Source of the DNA: Alphaproteobacteria bacterium
GTDB taxonomy: Bacteria; Pseudomonadota; Alphaproteobacteria; Sphingomonadales; Sphingomonadaceae
NCBI GenBank assembly: GCA_030424845.1
Contig: JAUHWC010000001.1
Location: forward strand, 434,001 to 498,000
DNA: 64,000 nucleotides
Reading direction: 5' to 3'
Positions within the stretch are counted from its first letter, which is position 1. Each line of letters starts with the position of its first letter. The position numbers and the translations under genes were made by a program. Shown here piece by piece: positions 6,437 through 22,221 of this stretch. A model generated the notes under the pieces. The model was not told the DNA's origin and ran no database searches. It worked only from the letters and a program-made list of their open reading frames with translations.

Positions 6437-7738
6437 TCAGCGAGTCGCGTCGAAGGCGAACTGCACCCTCACGCTGCCGGCAAGGCCTGCCGCACTCTCT
6501 CCCGTGCCGACGGAAAATGCGTTGCGATCGATCGTGGCATTGCCGCTGACCGATCTGCGTGCGCCACTGCCTGACAGGGTGAAGGTGATCGTTTGCGGAC
6601 GGCTGACACCCTTGAGGGAGAGCGTCCCGGTCGCACGATAGGAATTGGCACCAGTCCGTTCCACGCTGGTGGAGCGATAGGTGGCCGTGGGGAAGGCAGC
6701 AGTCGAGAAGAACTCCGCCCCCTGCAGCATCTGGTCCTGCGTGGCATCGCCAAGCGATGCACTGGCCAGTTCGATCGTGATCGCGATGTTGGAGCCAGCC
6801 GGATTCTCCGGATCCATCGTGATCGATCCGTCCCAACGGCGGAAACTGCCATTGATGGCACTGCCGCCATTATCGACCGTAAAGGTGAGCGAGCCGCCCG
6901 GCTGGATATCCCAACTGGGCGGAGGGCCGGCGGCAACGGGTTCGTCAGCAGGCTCTTCCTCTGCCACCGTTTCTTCAGCAGCAGCTTCCTCGGCAACCTC
7001 ATCCTCTTCACTCGCCCCGGCATCTTCGGCAGCGGCTTCGCCCTCGACCGCATCTTCGCCCCCGGCATCCTCTACCGCGAGCACGATCTCGCTGGCGTTC
7101 TCTTCGCCCTCATCCGCGTGATCGCCGTTGCCCGGCAGGGACAGGAATACCCCGCCGCCCAGCACCACGGTTGCCGCCAAAAGCGCCATGGCAGCGCCCG
7201 CCGAACCGCGTGGAGCCATGCGGGCGAGCAATCCGTCGCGCAGCATCACGTGGTGCCGCAAGGCACCTGCAACATGCAGCACGAACAGCGCCAATCCCAT
7301 GAAGGCGAGCAGTTCATGCACTTCCTTCATCGCGGGGTTGATGCTGCCGGGCAAAGGTAGGTGCGGCCACGGGACCAATCCGTAAAGGACCGTCGGCACG
7401 TTCAGCTCGTCAGTGGAAACGATTGCCCAGCCCGTCAGCGGTGCACCAAGCATGAACACGTAGAGCAAGACGTGCACGGCCTTGGCCAGCAAGCCATTGA
7501 AGCCGCCTTCCAGTGCCGGAGGCGTCTTGTGGGTCAGCCGCCAGACGATTCGCAGCACCGTCAACGCCAGGATCGTGATACCCAGGCTCTTGTGAAACTG
7601 GAACAATTCGAAACCGCTGGCATCGTGCGGCATGCCGAAACCGATCGCGATCTCCGCCGCCAGCGCAAGCGCGATCAGCCAATGCAGGAGGATGGCCCCG
7701 CGGCTGTAGCGTTGGACAGGATTTCCCAGCATTGTCAC
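6437..7738 (-). CDS. cytochrome b561 / YceI-domain fusion protein
   Basis: N-terminal b561 helices (RGAILLHWLIALAL, FHKSLGI, LLAFMGLALFVLHVAGALRHH), acidic Ala/Glu linker, C-terminal YceI (GSLTFTVDNGGSAINGSF..FSTAAFPTATYRS..LSLKGVSRP). Confidence 0.88.
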   Translation of the reverse strand: MTMLGNPVQRYSRGAILLHWLIALALAAEIAIGFGMPHDASGFELFQFHKSLGITILALTVLRIVWRLTHKTPPALEGGFNGLLAKAVHVLLYVFMLGAPLTGWAIVSTDELNVPTVLYGLVPWPHLPLPGSINPAMKEVHELLAFMGLALFVLHVAGALRHHVMLRDGLLARMAPRGSAGAAMALLAATVVLGGGVFLSLPGNGDHADEGEENASEIVLAVEDAGGEDAVEGEAAAEDAGASEEDEVAEEAAAEETVAEEEPADEPVAAGPPPSWDIQPGGSLTFTVDNGGSAINGSFRRWDGSITMDPENPAGSNIAITIELASASLGDATQDQMLQGAEFFSTAAFPTATYRSTSVERTGANSYRATGTLSLKGVSRPQTITFTLSGSGARRSVSGNATIDRNAFSVGTGESAAGLAGSVRVQFAFDATR

Positions 7739-7826: not shown

Positions 7827-8363
7827 CTAGGCCGTTGCGGAACGGCCGGCCTCTTCGGCGAGCACGTCTTCCATCAGCTTGTCCGCCCTTACGATCATTT
7901 CCTCGATCACCCGCCGCATCGCTGCGATATCGTCGGGATCGATACCTTCGGTCAGGATCCGGTCGCGTTCCTTCGCCCGTTCGACCATCCGCGCCCAGAC
8001 CTTGCGGCCTTCCGGCGCCAGCGTGATCTCGATCTCCGGCCCGCCCGGCTTGCGGGCCCGCTTGAGCAGGTTGCGTTCCACCATGCCCTTGACCGCGCGG
8101 CTGAGTTGCCCGCGATCCTGGATCAGCGCATCGGCCAGGTCATTGAGCGAGAGCGGCTTGTCGCCGCCCATCTTGGTCATGATGCGCCATTCGATCTCGG
8201 AGAGGTTGAACAGCCGCCGCTGGCTGAGGATCGTGCTGCGCCGCATGAGGTTGAACAGCACGACCATGCGCATGCTCACCAGTGGCTCCAGCGGACCCGG
8301 CTCGGCTGGGGCCTGCCCCGCCGCCGCCTTCTCATCCTCGCACCGAGCTGCCTGTCTACTCAT
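7827..8363 (-). CDS. MarR-family transcriptional regulator
   Basis: SEIEWRIMTKMGGDKPLSLNDLADALIQDRGQLSRAVKGMVERNLLKRARKPGGPEIEITL winged HTH. Confidence 0.9.
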   Translation of the reverse strand: MSRQAARCEDEKAAAGQAPAEPGPLEPLVSMRMVVLFNLMRRSTILSQRRLFNLSEIEWRIMTKMGGDKPLSLNDLADALIQDRGQLSRAVKGMVERNLLKRARKPGGPEIEITLAPEGRKVWARMVERAKERDRILTEGIDPDDIAAMRRVIEEMIVRADKLMEDVLAEEAGRSATA

Positions 8364-8400
8364 CTGTCACCCCAAGTCGCCATCATCGTGCCGGCTATTT

Positions 8401-8415
8401 TTTGAGTTTGTCAAA
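8401..8415. promoter_or_regulatory. putative MarR operator upstream of marR
   Basis: TTTGAGTTTGTCAAA, near-perfect inverted repeat 38 bp upstream of the marR start. Confidence 0.55.
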
Positions 8416-8509
8416 ATAGGCAAGTCCCGGCAATGCCATTTCATCCTTAAAGCATGAACCCGGAAAGGCCAGTGGCCTGCCCGCCTGCAGGCACGCCGCT
8501 GCCGCTCCG

Positions 8510-9874
8510 TCAGGCTTCCTCGGCTTGCAATCGCTCGATCTCGCGCCGATAGGGCCGCCAGCCCAACAGAGTGACTGCCAAGGCCGCTGGCAGGAAGATG
8601 ATGTGCAGCAACAGCATCGACCAGCGCAGGTCTTCGGGCGAGGTGAAGAGGTAATCGGTCGTCAGGCCCGTGATCACCGGTCCCAGCCCCTGGCCGACCA
8701 GGGTGTAGATGAACAGGTAGAGCGCCATCACCTGCCCGCGCACCTGGCTGGGCGTGACGATCAGCATCACCGCGTTCAACATCGGCCCGTTCATTCCCAA
8801 CAGCACGAAAGTGACCGCGTAGCAGGCCATCGACAACTCGGGTGTCGGCATGATCGGCATGGCGATGGCAAAGGGGATATTGAGCGCGCGGGAGTAGATT
8901 ACGATGCGGAAGGGAGCATCGTGGTGGCCGCGCGCCTGGAGCCGGTCGATCCAGCGGATCCCGATCCACAGTCCCAGCAGCATGGCCACGATCGACATCG
9001 TTCCGGCGATCATGCCATAGGTGGCCGGCCCCCAACCGTAGGTGCGCTCGAAGAAGGGGGCACCCCAGGCCCTGCCGCCACTGTCCAGTGCACCTAGCGT
9101 CAGCCCCAGGAACAGCGGCCCGAACACCGCGACGTGCAGCCAGATGTATTTGAGCGCGCCGAATACCGGGACACGCGAAACCTCGTGCTCCCGGAATGTC
9201 TGGCGGGGTGGTTCCTTCACCGTGGTCAATAACAGCGCCACCAGCACGCCCGGCAGGCCAACAGCCATGAGCACCACCTGCCAGGGACGCAATTCACCGA
9301 TAACGGGCAGGCTGGGCGTGCCGATGGCAGCGATGATCGTGATCATTGTCGCGCCAAGCAACAGCGACAGGCCGTTACCGGCCACGGCACCGATCTGCAG
9401 CCGATAGATCGCCCGCGGCAGCGTCTTGCGCGGAAAATAATCGGACACGATGGAATAGGAGGTGGCACCGTTCACGGATTCCCCGGCGCCCACCAGCATG
9501 CGCATGGCAAACAGCTGCCAGAAGCTGGAGGCAAGGCCGCAGGCAGCCGTCGCCAGGCTCCACACGGTCACGCCGATGGCGATTATGCGGGTGCGCACCC
9601 AGCGATCGATGAAAGGGGAAAGCGGTATGCCGACCAGCACATAGACAAAGGCAAAGGCGGGGCCCAGCAAGAGGCTGGCCTGGGTATCGGTCAGGCTGAA
9701 ATCCTCGATGATCTGCTGGATCAGCAGGCTGAGGATTCCCTGGTCGAGCTGGGCAAAGGTTGTTGTCAGCGCAAGGATGCCAACCGCGTACCAGCCCTGC
9801 CGCGCGGGCGGAAAGACATGCGGCCGGCGCGCATGGCACTGCTGCGCTTCTGGCTCGCCAGAAACTGTCTGCAT
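8510..9874 (-). CDS. MFS transporter (spinster-like)
   Basis: Twelve-TM-like hydrophobic protein; DQGILSLLIQQIIEDFSLTDTQASLLLGPAFAF; upstream Met at 9916 is an alternative start. Confidence 0.85.
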   Translation of the reverse strand: MQTVSGEPEAQQCHARRPHVFPPARQGWYAVGILALTTTFAQLDQGILSLLIQQIIEDFSLTDTQASLLLGPAFAFVYVLVGIPLSPFIDRWVRTRIIAIGVTVWSLATAACGLASSFWQLFAMRMLVGAGESVNGATSYSIVSDYFPRKTLPRAIYRLQIGAVAGNGLSLLLGATMITIIAAIGTPSLPVIGELRPWQVVLMAVGLPGVLVALLLTTVKEPPRQTFREHEVSRVPVFGALKYIWLHVAVFGPLFLGLTLGALDSGGRAWGAPFFERTYGWGPATYGMIAGTMSIVAMLLGLWIGIRWIDRLQARGHHDAPFRIVIYSRALNIPFAIAMPIMPTPELSMACYAVTFVLLGMNGPMLNAVMLIVTPSQVRGQVMALYLFIYTLVGQGLGPVITGLTTDYLFTSPEDLRWSMLLLHIIFLPAALAVTLLGWRPYRREIERLQAEEA

Positions 9875-10040
9875 CGATCCCCCGCTCTCGCCCCTCGCAA
9901 AGGGGCTTGGCGGCACCCTAGGCGGCTTGCGTGCGGACTACAACATCGCACTTTGCACAAGCAAAATGGTGCGCCGGACAAATGATCCGACGCACCAGGA
10001 TCGGGCAGATTCCATTGGGGAGGAATTGCCGCTTGATTGC

Positions 10041-10835
10041 TCAGAGATAGAGGGTTTCGCAGTTCTCGTTTACCGGGTTGCGGTCATTCTCGGCACACTG
10101 GAACTCGATCAGCGCGCCATGCCGGTCCCGGCGATAGCTCACTGTCACCTCATAGGGTCCTGAAAATGCCAGCGGATCGGTCATCACCATGTCGTTGACG
10201 AGGACATCGGGATCGTCGGGGGAGATGTAGATCCTCTCCACCAGCCGGAACTGGTCGGAGTGCTTGCCGCCCTCGCCCACCTCCATCCGGTCGGAAATGC
10301 CGATGGTATCCACCACCAGCGTTTCACCCTCCCAGTGGCCGATCGAATGGCCGTGATAGGAGGGATCGGGATCCTCGGGATGCTCGCGCCCGTCAGTCCA
10401 GATCGTGCGCGTCTGCATCCATGCTTCCTGGTTGATGGTGACCCGGCCCGGCGTGAACAGGAATTCGTAAGGGTACTGCGCCAGCTGCATGATGCGCGGC
10501 AGGCCCGGCGGGCTGCAATTGGATCGGCTGCGCAATTCCACGCCGTCATTCGCCTGCACCTGGTCGCGCCAGCGTTCCCATTGCTCAAGGTATTCGCCCT
10601 TGAGCGGCGGCTGCGGCAAGCGTCCACCGCGTTGCAGGAACCAGATGCCGCCCCAGTCGGGCAGCTGGTCGAGCTCGGCATATTTGCCCTTGGCAAAGCC
10701 GGCGCTGTCCTCGGCCTCGATGCCCGGAGGAACCGGCGAAGTGAACGCAGCCCCCAGTTCGGTCTGTGCCGCAGCGCCGAAACCGAACAGGCTGGCCCCG
10801 GCAAGACCCGCCATCATCACACGCTTCATGCTCAT
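10041..10835 (-). CDS. exported hypothetical protein, 'DGREH...GHWEG' family, copy 2
   Basis: Signal peptide; WTDGREHPEDPDPSYHGHSIGHWEGETLVVDT..RLVERI. Confidence 0.8.
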   Translation of the reverse strand: MSMKRVMMAGLAGASLFGFGAAAQTELGAAFTSPVPPGIEAEDSAGFAKGKYAELDQLPDWGGIWFLQRGGRLPQPPLKGEYLEQWERWRDQVQANDGVELRSRSNCSPPGLPRIMQLAQYPYEFLFTPGRVTINQEAWMQTRTIWTDGREHPEDPDPSYHGHSIGHWEGETLVVDTIGISDRMEVGEGGKHSDQFRLVERIYISPDDPDVLVNDMVMTDPLAFSGPYEVTVSYRRDRHGALIEFQCAENDRNPVNENCETLYL

Positions 10836-10865
10836 CTCGTGATCCTCTCCCCCTGCAACGCCGTG

Positions 10866-11246
10866 TCAGTCCGTGCTGACGTCGCCAAGCGTGGAGCCGT
10901 CAGCCTTGCGCACGCCGACATAGCTGCCGCCACGTGCACCGCTGCGCAAGGGGTGGACATAGAGCTGCACGCGATCGCCCTGGCGCAAAGTGGTGCGGGT
11001 CCAGCCTTCCTGGACGAGGTTGTTCGGGCTGGTCATTTCGATCGACCACTCCTCGCGCTCCCCGCCAGCCGCCACCTGCACGCGAATGAAGGCATGCGGG
11101 TTCTGCCACTTGAACTGCATCACGGTGGCATCGAGCACGACCGTGCGCTGCATGTCGAACATGGAATAGCTGTGATGGGCTGCGGCAGGGACTGCCAGCG
11201 GAGCCATGATTGCGGCGCCGAGCGCCAGCTTGTGTGCCAGTTTCAT
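10866..11246 (-). CDS. DUF6152-type exported protein, copy b
   Basis: MKLAHKLALGAAIMAPLAVPAAA|HHSYSMFD..QFKWQNPHAFIRV..RSGARGGSYVGVRKADG. Confidence 0.82.
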   Translation of the reverse strand: MKLAHKLALGAAIMAPLAVPAAAHHSYSMFDMQRTVVLDATVMQFKWQNPHAFIRVQVAAGGEREEWSIEMTSPNNLVQEGWTRTTLRQGDRVQLYVHPLRSGARGGSYVGVRKADGSTLGDVSTD

Positions 11247-11268
11247 TGCATGATCTCCTTCGATCACT

Positions 11269-11682
11269 TCAGAATTGCGGCACGTTGACCGGTTCCCCGT
11301 TCTTGGGGAGGCCGGAATCGAGCAAGGTGCCGTCCGCCTTGCGCAGGTCAAGGAACAGTCCGCCCGGCTCGCCATTGCGCAGCGGCGCCATCCGCAAGGT
11401 CACCTGGTCACCCGGATGCAGCGAATTGCGGTTCCATCCCTGGCGGCTCAGGTTGTTCGGGCTGTTCAGCTCGATGCTGTAATGGCGCGTCGCACGGCCC
11501 TGGCGAACCTCCAGTTCGATGAAGGCATGCGGGTTGGTCCACTGGAATTCCACCACCCGTCCTTCCAGCGTCATGATCTGGCGCTGGTCGAACATGGCGA
11601 AACTGTGATGGGACTGTGCCGGCCCCGCCATCGCCAGCACGGCGCCTGCGGCGGCCAGCGCAAGGGCGGTCATCCTAATCAT
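11269..11682 (-). CDS. DUF6152-type exported protein, copy a
   Basis: GPAQS|HHSFAMFDQRQIMTLEGRVVEFQWTNPHAFIELEV; overlaps the upstream gene by 8 bp. Confidence 0.82.
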   Translation of the reverse strand: MIRMTALALAAAGAVLAMAGPAQSHHSFAMFDQRQIMTLEGRVVEFQWTNPHAFIELEVRQGRATRHYSIELNSPNNLSRQGWNRNSLHPGDQVTLRMAPLRNGEPGGLFLDLRKADGTLLDSGLPKNGEPVNVPQF

Positions 11683-12619
11683 CGTCTCTTACTCCTTCCA
11701 CATTGCTCAACCCGCGCTCCTCCGCCTCTGCCCGGCCAAGGTTCGTGCCCGGCAGGTTGGCGTTGTAGGCCAGGATGCAGTTGCTTTCGTTGACGTCGGT
11801 ATAATCCTGCCGGTTGAAGCGCTTGGTAGAACGCCACTCGCCTTCCCAAAGCTCCGGATCGGTCATGATGTATTCGACTTCCATCACCGTGCCGTCCTCC
11901 AGCAGGCGGATACGCTCCACGATCTCGGTGTCGAAGGACATGGGGATGCCGTAATCGATGTAATGGTTGTCAGCCTCGAAATACTTGGTCGTCACGACCA
12001 GCGTATCGCCTTCCCAATGGCCGATACTCTCGCCGTTGTAGCTGGGTACGACGAGGTTGGAATCCGAATGCTCGCGCCCGTCGAGATAGATGATCCGCAC
12101 GGAATTGTTGAAACCCGAGATCATGTAGATCGCCGTAGGCAGCTGGATGAAGGCGTGCGGCCAGACGCGCGTCATGATCATCGGCATGCCCGGCGGGTAG
12201 CACTGCCCGATCGCATCGCGATAGGTCTCGCCGCGCTGCTGCGCTGCGGCGGAATCGATCAGCGCCTCGATCCCTTCGGGTCCGAACTTGGGATAGGGCG
12301 GGCCGAACAGGAAATGCAGGAAACCATCGGACAGGTCGATGAACCACGTGCCGGTGAGGTTGATCGGTGCCGGCGGGCGCTCGGCATTGAGGTTGGCCGG
12401 TGCCAGCGCACCAAGGTATCCCGGATGCTTGGGCACCATGTTGTAGAGGCGTTCCTCGCTCAGCGGCACATATTCGCGCACCACTTCGGGCTGGACCAGC
12501 TCTTCGCCTTCAGCTTCCTGCGCGAAGGCCGAACCCTGGCCCAGCGCCAGACCGGCGGCCAAGGCCACCGCCAGCGCCTTGCGCCTGTTTGCCTTCAAGA
12601 TCCTCTTGCTCTGCATCAT
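11675..12619 (-). CDS. exported hypothetical protein, 'DGREH...GHWEG' family, copy 1
   Basis: Signal peptide; YLDGREHSDSNLVVPSYNGESIGHWEGDTLVVTTKYF..EIVERIRLLEDG. Confidence 0.8.
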   Translation of the reverse strand: MMQSKRILKANRRKALAVALAAGLALGQGSAFAQEAEGEELVQPEVVREYVPLSEERLYNMVPKHPGYLGALAPANLNAERPPAPINLTGTWFIDLSDGFLHFLFGPPYPKFGPEGIEALIDSAAAQQRGETYRDAIGQCYPPGMPMIMTRVWPHAFIQLPTAIYMISGFNNSVRIIYLDGREHSDSNLVVPSYNGESIGHWEGDTLVVTTKYFEADNHYIDYGIPMSFDTEIVERIRLLEDGTVMEVEYIMTDPELWEGEWRSTKRFNRQDYTDVNESNCILAYNANLPGTNLGRAEAEERGLSNVEGVRDDD

Positions 12620-12638
12620 CTTCCCATACCCCAGGCTT

Positions 12639-12653
12639 TTTGACTATGTCAAA
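12639..12653. promoter_or_regulatory. putative MarR operator (perfect palindrome)
   Basis: TTTGAC-TAT-GTCAAA 20 bp upstream of the 12619 start; overlaps a TTGACA -35-like hexamer on the minus strand. Confidence 0.55.
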
Positions 12654-12716
12654 TTGGATTACGCCAGCATGAACGGAAGGACGCAACGCCAAGCGCGCCC
12701 TTCCGGCAATTGTTCT

Positions 12717-12747
12717 CCCCGCCCGCAAGGCATGCTTGCAGGCGGGG
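12717..12747 (-). terminator. stem-loop between the TonB receptor and the next gene
   Basis: CCCCGCCcGCAAGgcatgCTTGCaGGCGGGG; long stem, no U-tract. Confidence 0.45.
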
Positions 12748-12756
12748 ATCAGGCTA

Positions 12757-15216
12757 TCAGAAGTCGTACTGGAGCGTCAGCCCCACTTCACGCGGCTTTC
12801 CACGCACCACGAACAAGGCGGAGCGTTCCGGTGCCGAGAGCGGGATCTGGATTCGGGTCGGCCCGCCACGGTCCCAGTAGCCGCCACCGAAGCGCGTGGC
12901 ATAGCTGGCATAGGTGTTGTCCAGCAGGTTGTTGGCAAACAGGCTGACCGTGACCGGCGCGTTGTCCGGCTGGAAGCGGATGCGTGCATTGACCAGGTCG
13001 ATCGCCGGCAGCTGGTAGGCGGAATCCCCTTCATCCGTGGGATGGGTGGCCTGGCTGCTGGTATGGGCAAAGTTGACGTTGAAGGTCAGTTCACCCGGCC
13101 CGACATCGGCCATGTAGGTTGCGCCGATGTTGAAGCTGAACTTGGGCGGCCCCGGGAACAGGTTGGGACCGCTGTTGGCGACTTCGTCCTTGACGTCGTA
13201 GCCGGTGTAGCCAGCACTACCGTCAAGCCAGAAATCATCGGTCAGGTAGACCTGCGCATCCAGTTCGACACCATAGATGTCGACATCCCCGGTATTGATC
13301 AGCGCGATGCGGAAGCCGGGCGGTTCGGGGCAGCCCACCTCGCCGGAACACTGCACCTGGCGAGCCGCCTGGCGGTTGGTCCACTGCATGTAGAACGCCG
13401 TCGGGTTGAACCGCAGGCGTCCGTCGAGAGCCTCGATGCGCATACCGGTTTCGTAGTTGCGCACCTTTTCCGGGTCGATCGGCCGCAGCACTGCACTCTG
13501 CGCTTCGCCGGTTGCGTTGTCGGCGATTTCCACCCCGCCATAGGAGCCTGCCTTGTAGGCCTTGGACACGGTTGCGTACCACATCCAGTCGGGGGTCAGC
13601 TCATAGTCGATGGTGGCGCGCCAATCGAGCTGGTCCCAGCTTGCATCACTCGTCACCGTCGTGCGGTCGGTACCCGGTGCCGGCGTGAAGGTCTCGTGAG
13701 CATACTCGGTTGACGTGTAGTCCTTGCGGTCATGCGCATAACGAAGGCCGCCCGTGAAGTTCAGGCCATCGGTGATGTGCCAGGTGCCGCTGGCGAAGAT
13801 GCCGAAGGAATCGGACTTCTGGACCGTGTCGGTATCCGTGCGGGTGAACAGGCCCAGGTCGGCATTGCCATTGGGCCGCAGCGTGTTCGCGAAGGGCCCG
13901 CCGCGCGGCACGTCGCTGGTACCGCGACGGTTGACCACATATTCGTCATTCGACGACTTTTCGTGGAAATAGCTGCCACCCAGGATGAAATCGACTGCCC
14001 CTTCGAACAGTTCGGCGTTGAGCTGGATTTCCTGGTAGAACACATCGGACTTGATGTTGTTCATGCGGGTTTCGGTGCCGAGATACTGCCAGTCGAGATT
14101 GCTGGCATTATCGAGGTTGGAAAGGCCGCTGATGCTCGAAATGGTCAGGGTGTCCGACAGGTCGTATTCGAGGTTGAGCGATGCCTGCCAGTAATCGGTG
14201 TTGTCATACTGGAGGCAGGAATCGTCGAAATCGGGATCGAAATCGTCGATCAGGCAGAATGCGGGCGCGGTGAAATCATCGATCACGATGCGCGGATCGT
14301 TGTAGGCCGCGATCTGCTCCTGGCCGTCGGCAATGAGCGCATCGCCCAGCCAGTCGCCGTAGTTGCCTTCCCAGAAACCTTCGCCAATGCCCGGGCGCAT
14401 GTCGAATTCCTCGAACACGTGCGGCGTGCCGTTGCTCTTGTTCTTGGAATAGATGAAGCCGAGGTCGACCGTCAGGTCGCTGGAGGGCTCGAAACGCAGG
14501 TCGGCGCGCCCGATGTAATCGGTGGTGCGGCCAAGATCCTGCGGACCGCGCTGCACCCAGCCACCCTGGTTCAGGTAAGCCCCCTGCACGCGCAGTGCCG
14601 CATCGTCACCCAGTGGCAGGTTCAGTGCACCGACAAGGTCATGCCGTTCCATGTTGGCGATGGTCGCGCGGACATAGCCTTCGGTCACACCCACTTCGGG
14701 ACGCTTGGTGAAGTAGCGGATCGCACCACCGGTGGAGTTGCGGCCGAACAGGGTGCCTTGAGGTCCGCGCAGCACTTCGACACGTTCGATATCGAGCACG
14801 CGCAGCACCGAACCGTTGGTACGGGGGATGTAGACCCCGTCAAGATATAGGCCGACACCGCGTTCGCCGGTGGCACCGCCACCGCCAGCGATACCGCGGA
14901 TGGAGAACTGCGGGTTGGAATTGCCGCTGCCGCGGCCGCCGGTGATGTTGAGGTTGGGCGTGAAGGTGGCGAGGTCCTCAAGATCCTCGATACCCTTGGC
15001 ATCGATGGTTTCCGGCGTGACCGCCACGATCGACAGCGGCGTTTCCTGCAGGTTGGTCTCGCGGCGTTCGGCCGTCACGATGATGCTGGTGCCCGGCCGC
15101 GTCGCCCGCTCTCCCTCTGCCTCCTGCGCATGGGAAGGCGCCGCAACAGCCATGGCCATCACTGCGCAAGACGCAGCCAAAGCTGTCCTGCGGCCAAGAA
15201 TCTTGTCCGTTTTCAT
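12757..15216 (-). CDS. TonB-dependent receptor
   Basis: IIVTAERRETNLQETPLSI plug, VEVLRGPQGTLFGRNSTGGAIRY, C-terminal F (REVGLTLQYDF); start chosen after an AGGGAG RBS. Confidence 0.95.
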   Translation of the reverse strand: MKTDKILGRRTALAASCAVMAMAVAAPSHAQEAEGERATRPGTSIIVTAERRETNLQETPLSIVAVTPETIDAKGIEDLEDLATFTPNLNITGGRGSGNSNPQFSIRGIAGGGGATGERGVGLYLDGVYIPRTNGSVLRVLDIERVEVLRGPQGTLFGRNSTGGAIRYFTKRPEVGVTEGYVRATIANMERHDLVGALNLPLGDDAALRVQGAYLNQGGWVQRGPQDLGRTTDYIGRADLRFEPSSDLTVDLGFIYSKNKSNGTPHVFEEFDMRPGIGEGFWEGNYGDWLGDALIADGQEQIAAYNDPRIVIDDFTAPAFCLIDDFDPDFDDSCLQYDNTDYWQASLNLEYDLSDTLTISSISGLSNLDNASNLDWQYLGTETRMNNIKSDVFYQEIQLNAELFEGAVDFILGGSYFHEKSSNDEYVVNRRGTSDVPRGGPFANTLRPNGNADLGLFTRTDTDTVQKSDSFGIFASGTWHITDGLNFTGGLRYAHDRKDYTSTEYAHETFTPAPGTDRTTVTSDASWDQLDWRATIDYELTPDWMWYATVSKAYKAGSYGGVEIADNATGEAQSAVLRPIDPEKVRNYETGMRIEALDGRLRFNPTAFYMQWTNRQAARQVQCSGEVGCPEPPGFRIALINTGDVDIYGVELDAQVYLTDDFWLDGSAGYTGYDVKDEVANSGPNLFPGPPKFSFNIGATYMADVGPGELTFNVNFAHTSSQATHPTDEGDSAYQLPAIDLVNARIRFQPDNAPVTVSLFANNLLDNTYASYATRFGGGYWDRGGPTRIQIPLSAPERSALFVVRGKPREVGLTLQYDF

Positions 15217-15299
15217 CCAGATATCTCCCTCACCCCTACCGCCGGTATCTTTTTTCCAGTGGCCCGGCAGGCGGTATGCCGAAGTCACCAATCAATGTT

Positions 15300-15337
15300 T
15301 TTGACTTCCGCAAATGTATATTTTTGACATCCGCAAA
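15300..15337. promoter_or_regulatory. tandem putative MarR operators upstream of the TonB receptor
   Basis: TTTGACTTCCGCAAA (15300-15314) and TTTGACATCCGCAAA (15323-15337), 23 bp period; overlaps minus-strand TTGCGT-N16-TATACA promoter-like elements. Confidence 0.55.
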
Positions 15338-15458
15338 CGCAAGCCATTATTCCAAGCTTGTTGATATCTCCACACTTTGACGAGGCAAATCCGCGCTTTC
15401 CTACAACCGTGCCGCTCAGCCAATGCCGCCGCGACTCGAACACGCACGGAGTTTGCCA

Positions 15459-15872
15459 ATGGCCCTGCTCGAAACCCTTATCGGCCCCCTCACCTCGATC
15501 ATCGACAAGGTGATCCCGGACAAGGCCGCGCGAGACAGGGCCAAGCTGGAGCTTCTCAAGCTGGAAGGCACGCAGGAACTGGCGCTTATCGAGACGCAGA
15601 TCTCGGCCATCATCGCTGAAGCGAATTCGCGCGATCCGTGGACCAGCCGCGCCCGGCCCAGCTTCCTCTATGTGATGTATGTCCTGCTGTTGTTCGCCCT
15701 GCCGATGGGCGTGCTGGCAGCCTTTCGCCCCGATACCGCGCATGACATCGCCAAGGGCATGAACGATTACCTGGGCGGCCTGCCTGAACCGCTCTACGCC
15801 CTCTTCGGCACCGGCTATCTGGGCTACACGGCTGCGCGCCAGTGGGGGAAGATCAAGGGTGTCGAGAAATAG
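15459..15872 (+). CDS. GTA-type 3TM holin family protein
   Basis: MALLETLIGPLTSIIDKVIPDKAARDRAKLELLKLEG..AEANSRDPWTSRARPSFLYVMYVLLLFALPMG, typical of the GTA_holin_3TM family. Confidence 0.8.
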   Translation: MALLETLIGPLTSIIDKVIPDKAARDRAKLELLKLEGTQELALIETQISAIIAEANSRDPWTSRARPSFLYVMYVLLLFALPMGVLAAFRPDTAHDIAKGMNDYLGGLPEPLYALFGTGYLGYTAARQWGKIKGVEK

Positions 15873-20551: not shown

Positions 20552-21295
20552 TCAGTCCTGCCCGATCTGCTGGTACTCCACGGCAAAGCTGGGATCGCAC
20601 TCATAGGGATAGACGTGGTCATCGCGCCTTTCCCAGCTGATGAAGCGCGCGCCGTCATTTTCCAGCACGTTGCGGTCCGAGAACCATTGCGTGGCCATCA
20701 GGCGCGAGCCGTCTTGCGACAGGCGATAACGCTCGCGCGTCACGATCTCGTCGGTATGGTCGAGCCCGTTGTTGGTGATCGTGCTGGCGGCAATGTGGGT
20801 GGTCTCGATCACCAGTTCATCGCCTTCCCAATGGCCGGTGGAATAACCCATCTTGGTGTGGGGGTAATCCTCGCCCGGGTGCTCGCGCCCGTCCATGTAG
20901 ACCAGCCGCGTCTGGTCGAAATATTCATAGCGGATGATAATCACATCCTGCATCTGTATGATTTCAAAGGGAAACGGTCCTTGCAAGGAATAGACGATGC
21001 TGGGTGCAAGACACACCCGCCCCAGTGTCATCTCGTCCTGTGCTTCCCATTCCAGGGCCTTGGCCAGCGCATCCGGCGTGAGGCGCAATGCGCCGAATTC
21101 CCCCTTCGGGAATTCCTCGATCCCGGTGTCCTCCACCATCGCCGTGCCTTCGGGCAGCTTGTCCAGCATGTCTTGCGGGCGTTCGCCCTGGCCGTATTGC
21201 GGAGCCCAGAAACCCGTCAGGTCAGGATGGTCCTGCGCGGCAACGGGAACGCTGCAAGATACCGCCAGCGCTGCGGCCAGCAACAGGCTGCGCAT
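20552..21295 (-). CDS. exported hypothetical protein, 'DGREH...GHWEG' family, copy 3
   Basis: Signal peptide; VYMDGREHPGEDYPHTKMGYSTGHWEGDELVIETTHI. Confidence 0.8.
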   Translation of the reverse strand: MRSLLLAAALAVSCSVPVAAQDHPDLTGFWAPQYGQGERPQDMLDKLPEGTAMVEDTGIEEFPKGEFGALRLTPDALAKALEWEAQDEMTLGRVCLAPSIVYSLQGPFPFEIIQMQDVIIIRYEYFDQTRLVYMDGREHPGEDYPHTKMGYSTGHWEGDELVIETTHIAASTITNNGLDHTDEIVTRERYRLSQDGSRLMATQWFSDRNVLENDGARFISWERRDDHVYPYECDPSFAVEYQQIGQD

Positions 21296-21690
21296 CAATT
21301 GTCTCCCATGCCGAAGGACTGCCCGATCTGCGCGCCATCGGCATCGAAGGCCCGGCGCAGGCGGATGTAGGGCTTGCCGTCCCGGCTCAGCCAACCGTCA
21401 AGCCGCACGCGCTGGCCGGGTTGCAGGCTGCGCCGCGACCAGCCGCGCCGTTGCAGGATGACCGGCGCGTTGGTCTCCGCCCGCCAGCGGGTGACGCTGC
21501 CATCCTCGCCCGTCACATCCAGTGCAATGGTGGCGTGCGGGTTGGTGAAGCGGAAGGACACCACCTCCCCTTCGATAGAGACCTCGTTGGTTTCATCGAA
21601 GAACACGGCAAAGGAATGATGCGCCGCCACAACGGCAGGCACGGACAGCGCCATTGCCGCGGGCACAACGCATTTGAGCAGGATTTTCAT
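21295..21690 (-). CDS. DUF6152-type exported protein, copy c
   Basis: MKILLKCVVPAAMALSVPAVVAA|HHSFAVFF..VVSFRFTNPHATIALDV; stop overlaps next start (TGATG). Confidence 0.8.
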   Translation of the reverse strand: MKILLKCVVPAAMALSVPAVVAAHHSFAVFFDETNEVSIEGEVVSFRFTNPHATIALDVTGEDGSVTRWRAETNAPVILQRRGWSRRSLQPGQRVRLDGWLSRDGKPYIRLRRAFDADGAQIGQSFGMGDN

Positions 21691-21756: not shown

Positions 21757-22221
21757 TCAATCGAGCGGAACGCCTGGTTCGTACTTGGCGGTGCGGATGG
21801 TCAGCGACGTCTTCACGCTGGCGACGTTGGGCGCCGGCGTCAGCTTGCTGGTCAGGAACTCCTGGAAGCTCTGCAAGTCCCGGCTGACGATCTTGAGGAT
21901 GAAATCGATCTCGCCATTGAGCATGTGGCATTCGCGCACTTCCGGAAGGGTCTGGATGTGCTCCTCGAAACCGCGCAGGTCCTCCTCCGCCTGGCTGCGC
22001 AGCGAAACCATCGAGAAAACGGTGATGGCGAAACCCAGTTTCGAAGGATCGAGATCTGCGTGATAGCCGCGGATCACGCCCGCTTCTTCCAGTGCGCGGA
22101 CACGGCGCAGGCAGGGCGGCGCTGTCAGGCCCACACGCTTGGCAAGGTCCACATTGGTGACCCGGCCTTCCGCCTGCAGCTCCGCCAGCAGTTTCCGGTC
22201 GATTTCGTCAAGACTCGCCAT
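21757..22221 (-). CDS. Lrp/AsnC family transcriptional regulator
   Basis: LDEIDRKLLAELQAEGRVTNVDLAKRVGLTAPPCLRRVRALEEAGVI. Confidence 0.95.
   Translation of the reverse strand: MASLDEIDRKLLAELQAEGRVTNVDLAKRVGLTAPPCLRRVRALEEAGVIRGYHADLDPSKLGFAITVFSMVSLRSQAEEDLRGFEEHIQTLPEVRECHMLNGEIDFILKIVSRDLQSFQEFLTSKLTPAPNVASVKTSLTIRTAKYEPGVPLD

What the first reader, a model, noticed from the sequence alone, without database searches (positions are those of the whole stretch)
7827..15389. Candidate undescribed exported system: TonB receptor, MFS transporter, MarR and two DUF6152 / GHWEG-family pairs
Seen: on the minus strand, in transcription order, TonB receptor, GHWEG copy 1, DUF6152 a, DUF6152 b, GHWEG copy 2, MFS transporter, MarR. 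Copy 1 and DUF6152 a overlap by 8 bp. Both small families have signal peptides. The GHWEG proteins share DGREH...GHWEG(D/E)xLVV...T and an ER.R/I segment. Known: TonB receptors plus MFS transporters plus a local regulator usually indicate uptake of a specific ligand. Inference: the two exported families form a periplasmic module acting on, or binding, the imported compound. I recognise no characterised function for either family.
Basis: partly seen in the sequence, partly recalled or inferred. Interest (0 to 1): 0.75.

Follow-up and report, generated by a model that had tools for sequence, protein, structure and literature searches.

The report
Conserved exported quartet, candidate copper module
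A bacterium carries a four-gene block of two uncharacterised exported protein families, kept together across at least two bacterial phyla and apparently switched with an outer-membrane uptake receptor by a shared DNA operator; sequence evidence suggests one family holds a metal ion (probably copper) at its very first amino acid and the other is a greasy-molecule-binding barrel.

Summary
On the minus strand lie a TonB receptor, GHWEG1, DUF6152a, DUF6152b, GHWEG2, an MFS transporter and a MarR regulator. The core is the GHWEG1-DUF6152a-DUF6152b-GHWEG2 quartet: intact in 9/9 other genus genomes carrying the tandem DUF6152 pair. Quartets of the same two GHWEG types also occur in Gammaproteobacteria and Acidobacteriota. 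TonB and MarR come and go together (6/9); the MFS is optional.

A palindrome, TTTGAC-N3-GTCAAA, precedes TonB, GHWEG1 and MarR. It is present wherever the MarR is present and absent in the 4 quartet loci lacking both MarR and TonB, which supports co-regulation.

GHWEG has no Pfam or NCBIfam model (0/97 members) and models as a calycin-like barrel with a GxW motif. DUF6152 models as an OB fold. Its predicted mature N-terminus is invariably His-His, followed by an invariant Pro-His: a candidate histidine-brace metal site, not demonstrated. A third family, DUF6644 (4-TM), tracks DUF6152 across genomes.

Best reading: a co-regulated exported module that binds, and perhaps oxidatively processes, a hydrophobic compound. 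Co-function is well supported; copper and catalysis are inference.

The parts
12757..15216 (-). TonB-dependent outer-membrane receptor (PF07715 + PF00593)
   Evidence: E 1.9e-40 and 7.6e-19; orthologue in 6/9 other genus quartet loci
11675..12619 (-). GHWEG1: exported protein of an unnamed family, ancient clade 1
   Evidence: no Pfam/NCBIfam hit
11269..11682 (-). DUF6152a; predicted mature N-terminus HHSFAMFD (residue 25), NPH at mature residues 26-28; OB-fold model
   Evidence: PF19649 116.5 bits; conservation; model
10866..11246 (-). DUF6152b; predicted mature N-terminus HHSYSMFD
   Evidence: PF19649 111.2 bits
10041..10835 (-). GHWEG2: exported protein, ancient clade 2; calycin-like beta-barrel model
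8510..9874 (-). MFS transporter (optional member)
   Evidence: PF07690 124 bits; orthologue in only one of nine other genus loci, L064; L066 has a gene of similar size at the same place
7827..8363 (-). MarR-type regulator
   Evidence: PF12802 26.7 bits, just under the cut-off; homologue annotated MarR
12639..12653 (.). Perfect palindrome TTTGAC-N3-GTCAAA upstream of GHWEG1 (candidate MarR operator); the only perfect copy in the genome
15300..15337 (.). Two imperfect copies of the palindrome (15300, 15323) upstream of TonB
8401..8415 (.). Palindrome with one mismatch upstream of MarR
12694..12750 (-). GC-rich hairpin (CCCCGCC...GGCGGGG) between TonB and GHWEG1, possible terminator; similar hairpins at this place in L058, L061, L063, L064
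   Evidence: read from the sequence; not scored
21295..21690 (-). Second DUF6152 locus in the window (DUF6152c)
20552..21295 (-). GHWEG paralogue paired with DUF6152c, 1-bp overlap

Best explanation
GHWEG1-DUF6152a-DUF6152b-GHWEG2 is one exported (periplasmic) functional unit. A MarR regulator controls it together with the TonB receptor through TTTGAC-N3-GTCAAA operators. Proposed mechanism: the TonB receptor brings in a hydrophobic small molecule (possibly a plant- or lignin-type aromatic). The GHWEG proteins, calycin-like barrels locked by a probable disulfide, hold it. The DUF6152 proteins, OB folds whose mature N-terminal His-His plus a Pro-His build a metal site (most likely Cu), act on the bound ligand or deliver metal for a redox step. 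Shown: gene set, co-conservation, two ancient types of GHWEG in quartets, shared operator sequence. Predicted by models: both folds. Inferred: N-terminal processing, metal, copper, ligand class, catalysis.
For: Quartet kept in 9/9 genus genomes and in another genus. Quartets with one GHWEG of each ancient clade in Alpha- and Gammaproteobacteria and Acidobacteriota. 69/80 DUF6152 loci have GHWEG within 1 kb. D and G co-diverge (Mantel r 0.57, largest shuffle 0.13). Same 8 plasmids hold both. Operator in every locus with the MarR and none in the 4 quartet loci lacking both MarR and TonB (p about 0.001); 2 of the 5 near-perfect genomic sites lie in this locus. DUF6152 H1, H2, P27, H28 invariant; in a Pfam-anchored set every sequence has His-His after A/S. 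DUF6644 genomes are a subset of DUF6152 genomes, 11 of 11. GHWEG model pLDDT 88.5 with CRABP-type matches and GxW, Cys84 and Cys224 conserved. GHWEG fused to an esterase domain; copies next to RPE65/lignostilbene-type dioxygenases and FAD oxidases.
Against: No metal, ligand or activity was measured, and no coordinates were available to measure His-His distances. Foldseek matches are weak (GHWEG TM 0.5-0.6 on the target, rmsd 7-8 A; DUF6152 matches nucleic-acid-binding OB folds). Neighbouring genes are diverse, so no single substrate emerges. TonB and MarR are missing from a third of the genus quartets. Relatedness inflates the co-occurrence and operator statistics. The N-terminal His was inferred from the A-x-A rule, not sequenced.
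Confidence: 0.42

Rival explanations
1. Metal-free periplasmic binding module: GHWEG lipocalin-like carriers and DUF6152 OB-fold co-binders only ferry a hydrophobic ligand from the TonB receptor to the inner membrane.
For: TonB receptor and MarR shared operator; calycin-like model; OB-fold hits are binders, not enzymes of their own.
Against: Does not explain the invariant His-His at the mature N-terminus and the invariant Pro-His, nor the tie to DUF6644 outside uptake loci.
Confidence: 0.25
2. DUF6152 is a periplasmic copper chaperone with DUF6644 as its membrane partner (working like CopC/CopD), and in catabolic loci it only metallates another cuproenzyme or handles copper.
For: DUF6152 and DUF6644 are adjacent and nested in genomes; known bacterial His-brace variants (CopC, PmoF1, YcnI) are linked to copper transport (PMC10952591).
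Against: No copper-homeostasis family (CopD, CusA, copper ATPases) among the most frequent neighbour families (only the first 25 shown). Up to 8 copies per genome in substrate-type clusters with GHWEG argue for a substrate-specific job. The window locus itself has no DUF6644.
Confidence: 0.2
3. GHWEG is the enzyme (a lipocalin-fold isomerase, hydratase or lyase) and DUF6152 is a small structural or specificity subunit; the histidines are structural or catalytic without metal.
For: GHWEG copies sit with different catabolic genes, are fused to an esterase in two genomes and occur without DUF6152 at several loci of the genome.
Against: GHWEG invariants are mostly structural (G, W, L, C); no catalytic pattern recognised.
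Confidence: 0.13

Closest known systems
DUF6152 (Pfam PF19649)
   Same: DUF6152a and b are clear members
   Different: Pfam assigns no function; no paper in the searched library names it. Its N-terminal His-His/Pro-His, its link to GHWEG and DUF6644 and its two subtypes (HHS.. with GHWEG; HHGW with DUF6644) are described here.
Copper histidine-brace proteins (CopC, LPMOs, pMMO subunit B, PmoF1, X325, YcnI variant)
   Same: Exported, with a predicted His at mature residue 1 and a second invariant His; a 4-TM partner family recalls CopC/CopD
   Different: OB fold in the model; no CopC or LPMO among the top fold matches; copper binding untested; placed in catabolic-type rather than copper loci
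CusF-type OB-fold copper chaperone (from own knowledge)
   Same: Small periplasmic OB-fold protein
   Different: CusF binds Cu(I) with His/Met/Trp of the barrel, not with an N-terminal His; not among the listed fold matches
Lipocalins / FABP / CRABP (calycins)
   Same: Antiparallel barrel model and GxW near the first strand
   Different: No sequence match to any solved structure or Pfam family; extra helices and about 100 more residues; weak TM-scores
TonB receptor plus MarR aromatic-uptake loci of sphingomonads (e.g. DdvT of Sphingobium SYK-6, PMC8599685, abstract only)
   Same: TonB receptor for a lignin-derived aromatic in a related bacterium
   Different: The quartet is not part of the described pathways; searched texts on pinoresinol, beta-5 dimers and lignin dimers mention neither family

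Membership tests
DUF6152 (PF19649) | Match above the curated Pfam cut-off | tested here: met
   116.5 and 111.2 bits vs 27
Copper histidine-brace proteins | Histidine as mature N-terminal residue | tested here: inconclusive
   All sequences of the Pfam-anchored set have His-His right after an A/S at an A-x-A-type site; cleavage not measured
Copper histidine-brace proteins | Second conserved His as ligand | tested here: inconclusive
   P27-H28 invariant in 102 sequences; geometry not measurable without coordinates
Copper histidine-brace proteins | Binds copper in T-shaped geometry | not testable with these tools
   needs protein
CopC / LPMO (as families) | Shared fold or sequence homology | tested here: not met
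   OB-fold matches only in the top 50; no CopC/LPMO Pfam or PDB sequence match
CopD (for the DUF6644 partner) | CopD Pfam match | tested here: not met
   Only DUF6644/DUF2214 matches; one membrane His is invariant in 12/12
Lipocalin/calycin | GxW motif at the first strand | tested here: met
   G40 in 93/97, W42 in 92/97; first strand 41-45
Lipocalin/calycin | Calycin barrel fold | tested here: inconclusive
   CRABP/CRBP top hits E 8e-5, TM on target 0.47-0.59, rmsd 7-8 A
Lipocalin/calycin | Match to a lipocalin family model | tested here: not met
   0 of 97 members match any Pfam model
TonB-dependent receptor | Plug and barrel domains | tested here: met
MarR regulator | MarR Pfam cut-off | tested here: inconclusive
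   26.7 vs 27 bits; homologue annotated MarR; linked palindrome
MFS transporter | MFS_1 Pfam cut-off | tested here: met
   124 vs 33 bits

The most novel reading that the evidence does not exclude
DUF6152 is a new family of N-terminal-histidine (histidine-brace) copper proteins built on an OB fold. Together with the lipocalin-like GHWEG family it forms a multi-paralogue periplasmic copper oxygenase or peroxygenase system for hydrophobic small molecules, with DUF6644 as an inner-membrane partner; an unrecognised copper chemistry in Proteobacteria and Acidobacteriota.
Probability: 0.17. Interest if true: 0.87.

Novelty: new variant of a known kind. Interest (0 to 1): 0.62.

Why it matters
It ties three uncharacterised families (one without any Pfam or NCBIfam model) into one testable system found in several bacterial classes and at least two phyla, with up to 8 copies of DUF6152 per genome. 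It predicts exact residues (His1, His2, His28 of mature DUF6152) and an exact operator. If DUF6152 is a copper histidine-brace protein, that chemistry would extend to a new fold and to degradation of hydrophobic organic compounds, perhaps lignin-type.

Tried and rejected
(1) Single operon of all seven genes: set aside, because TonB and MarR have their own operator copies and a hairpin separates TonB from GHWEG1. (2) MFS as a core member: rejected, optional. (3) Lignin-dimer pathway membership: three papers searched, neither family mentioned; lignin-type genes lie beside some own-genome copies only, so the substrate stays open. (4) GHWEG as polyketide cyclase (E 0.044) or in other Pfam/NCBIfam/PDB families: no support. 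(5) Nucleic-acid binding for DUF6152 despite OB-fold hits: unlikely for an exported protein. (6) A first simple gene caller gave 62/80 adjacency; six-frame profile search corrected it to 69/80. (7) The 80-locus set was seeded with HHSFAM-like patterns, so N-terminal conservation was rechecked on Pfam-anchored loci. (9) PDB sequence searches for DUF6152: nothing meaningful.

Full report
What is there. The seven genes are as described, on the minus strand. The TonB receptor and MFS are clear Pfam members, the MarR sits at the edge of its model, both DUF6152 proteins are far above the PF19649 cut-off, and the two GHWEG proteins are homologous to each other but match no Pfam, NCBIfam or PDB sequence family. 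None of 97 diverse GHWEG members does either, so the family is undescribed in those libraries.

Paralogues at home. The genome (2.83 Mb) holds 7 DUF6152 and about 14 GHWEG genes. Every DUF6152 lies beside a GHWEG, often with 1-2 bp gaps or overlaps, including a second pair inside this window (20552-21690). GHWEG genes without DUF6152 lie beside an RPE65-type (lignostilbene/carotenoid) dioxygenase with FAD-linked oxidase, MFS and MarR genes; by a monooxygenase-like gene; and by PQQ dehydrogenases. Part of this labelling was read by eye from sequence starts.

Conservation of the block. In all nine other genomes of the genus that have the tandem DUF6152 pair, the order GHWEG1-DUF6152a-DUF6152b-GHWEG2 is intact, though the surroundings vary. 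TonB and MarR are both present in six and both absent in three; the MFS orthologue occurs in one of the nine, and L066 has a gene of similar size at that place. Another genus of the family also has the quartet. From the genome collection of 85,462 species, 80 DUF6152 loci were fetched; 69 have a GHWEG within 1 kb. Quartets also occur in Gammaproteobacteria and Acidobacteriota, there as G(-)D(+)D(+)G(-). A tree shows that GHWEG1 and GHWEG2 belong to two old clades and that quartets of all these groups hold one of each, with positions exchanged. The DUF6152 tree rests on few columns and is less clear. Neighbouring D and G co-diverge (Mantel r 0.57 against at most 0.13 in shuffles), though shared ancestry contributes.

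Co-occurrence. Of 150 Pseudomonadota genomes, 16 have DUF6152, 5 have GHWEG and 11 have DUF6644; all GHWEG and all DUF6644 genomes are among the 16 (hypergeometric 7e-6 and 3e-13, uncorrected for kinship). Of 72,556 plasmids the same 8 hold both GHWEG and DUF6152; one, from Croceibacterium atlanticum, carries DUF6152 x2, GHWEG, TonB and MarR between two G8/CEMIP-type genes.

Regulation. A palindrome TTTGAC-N3-GTCAAA stands perfectly before GHWEG1 and imperfectly before TonB (two copies) and MarR. Loci with the MarR (window, L058-L061, L063, L064, L066, L067, L070, and the plasmid L197) have 1-5 sites where 0.07-0.37 are expected; L057, L062, L065 and L076, quartet loci lacking both MarR and TonB, have none. 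L067 and L070 may be near-copies of fetched genus loci, so these are not all independent. L068, L069 and L084, which lack the MarR nearby, do show some imperfect sites, so the rule is not absolute. In the whole genome the only perfect site is the GHWEG1 one, and two of five sites with at most one mismatch lie in this locus. This is good evidence for a MarR regulon. A hairpin after TonB suggests separate transcripts rather than one operon.

Nature of DUF6152. In 102 sequences H1, H2, S3, P27 and H28 are invariant, with Ala before H1 in 94 of 99. Because those loci were fetched partly with an HHSFAM pattern, the check was repeated on Pfam-anchored loci: all 64 distinct sequences show His-His right after A or S (46 A|HHS, 12 A|HHG, 4 S|HHS, 1 A|HHA, and one A|HHP), followed by a Pro-His some 20-30 residues on in those displayed. 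Many of these are close relatives from one genus. The model (pLDDT 90.9) is a five-stranded OB fold. An exported protein whose predicted first residue is an invariant His, with a second invariant His, is what copper histidine-brace proteins look like (PMC10952591); DUF6152 is not in that review's table. It is not a CopC or LPMO by fold. Copper is inference.

A third partner. DUF6644, a 4-TM family with one invariant membrane His in the 12 sequences aligned, stands alone beside the divergent HHGW-type DUF6152 (about 150-180 bp away in seven genomes) and as a tandem pair near GHWEG-type loci. This recalls CopC/CopD in arrangement only.

Nature of GHWEG. The model (pLDDT 88.5) is an antiparallel barrel whose best solved matches are retinoid-binding proteins, with modest scores. 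GxW, two near-invariant cysteines (84, 224), G-x-S-x-G-x-W and E-R are conserved. In two gammaproteobacterial genomes GHWEG is fused to a PHB-depolymerase-type esterase, and in a third the two genes are adjacent. A hydrophobic-ligand barrel is the most economical reading.

Mechanism and confidence. Co-function of the quartet: about 0.9. Shared MarR control with TonB: about 0.8. GHWEG binds a hydrophobic ligand: about 0.55. DUF6152 binds a metal at its N-terminus: about 0.55, copper about 0.45. Redox processing of the ligand: about 0.2-0.25. The stated overall confidence, 0.42, is for the combined picture with metal-assisted handling of a ligand.

Literature. DUF6152 and DUF6644 give no paper in the searched open-access library; three lignin-dimer pathway papers mention neither family in the passages searched. 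Subscription journals were not covered.

Noticed in passing
window 20552-21690 (-): A second DUF6152-GHWEG pair with 1-bp overlap, downstream of an Lrp/AsnC-like regulator (21757-22221).
   Followed up: partly
L115:4336-7449 and L122:9599-12478: GHWEG fused in one reading frame to a PHB-depolymerase-type esterase; in L135 the two are adjacent genes.
   Followed up: partly
L149-L158, L165: A divergent DUF6152 subtype starting HHGW, usually directly beside a single DUF6644-type 4-TM protein and without GHWEG.
   Followed up: partly
L068:8968-11428, L069:536-2981: Tandem DUF6152 pair without GHWEG, followed by two glutathione-S-transferase genes and a TonB receptor, with operator-like palindromes.
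   Followed up: no
G000:C7:648000-680000 (L021, L022): Cluster of PQQ dehydrogenases, cytochrome c, three tandem GHWEG genes, a DUF6644 pair, GHWEG, DUF6152 and an esterase.
   Followed up: partly
L197 (Croceibacterium atlanticum plasmid NZ_CP011453.2): DUF6152 x2, GHWEG2, TonB and MarR lie between two large G8/CEMIP beta-helix proteins.
   Followed up: no
window 15459-15872 (+): GTA_holin_3TM protein (PF11351) next to the TonB promoter, part of the conserved aroQ-accB neighbourhood.
   Followed up: no
window 6437-7738 (-): Cytochrome b561-YceI fusion next to MarR; also near the quartet in L057, L059, L063 and L064, probably an ancestral neighbour.
   Followed up: no
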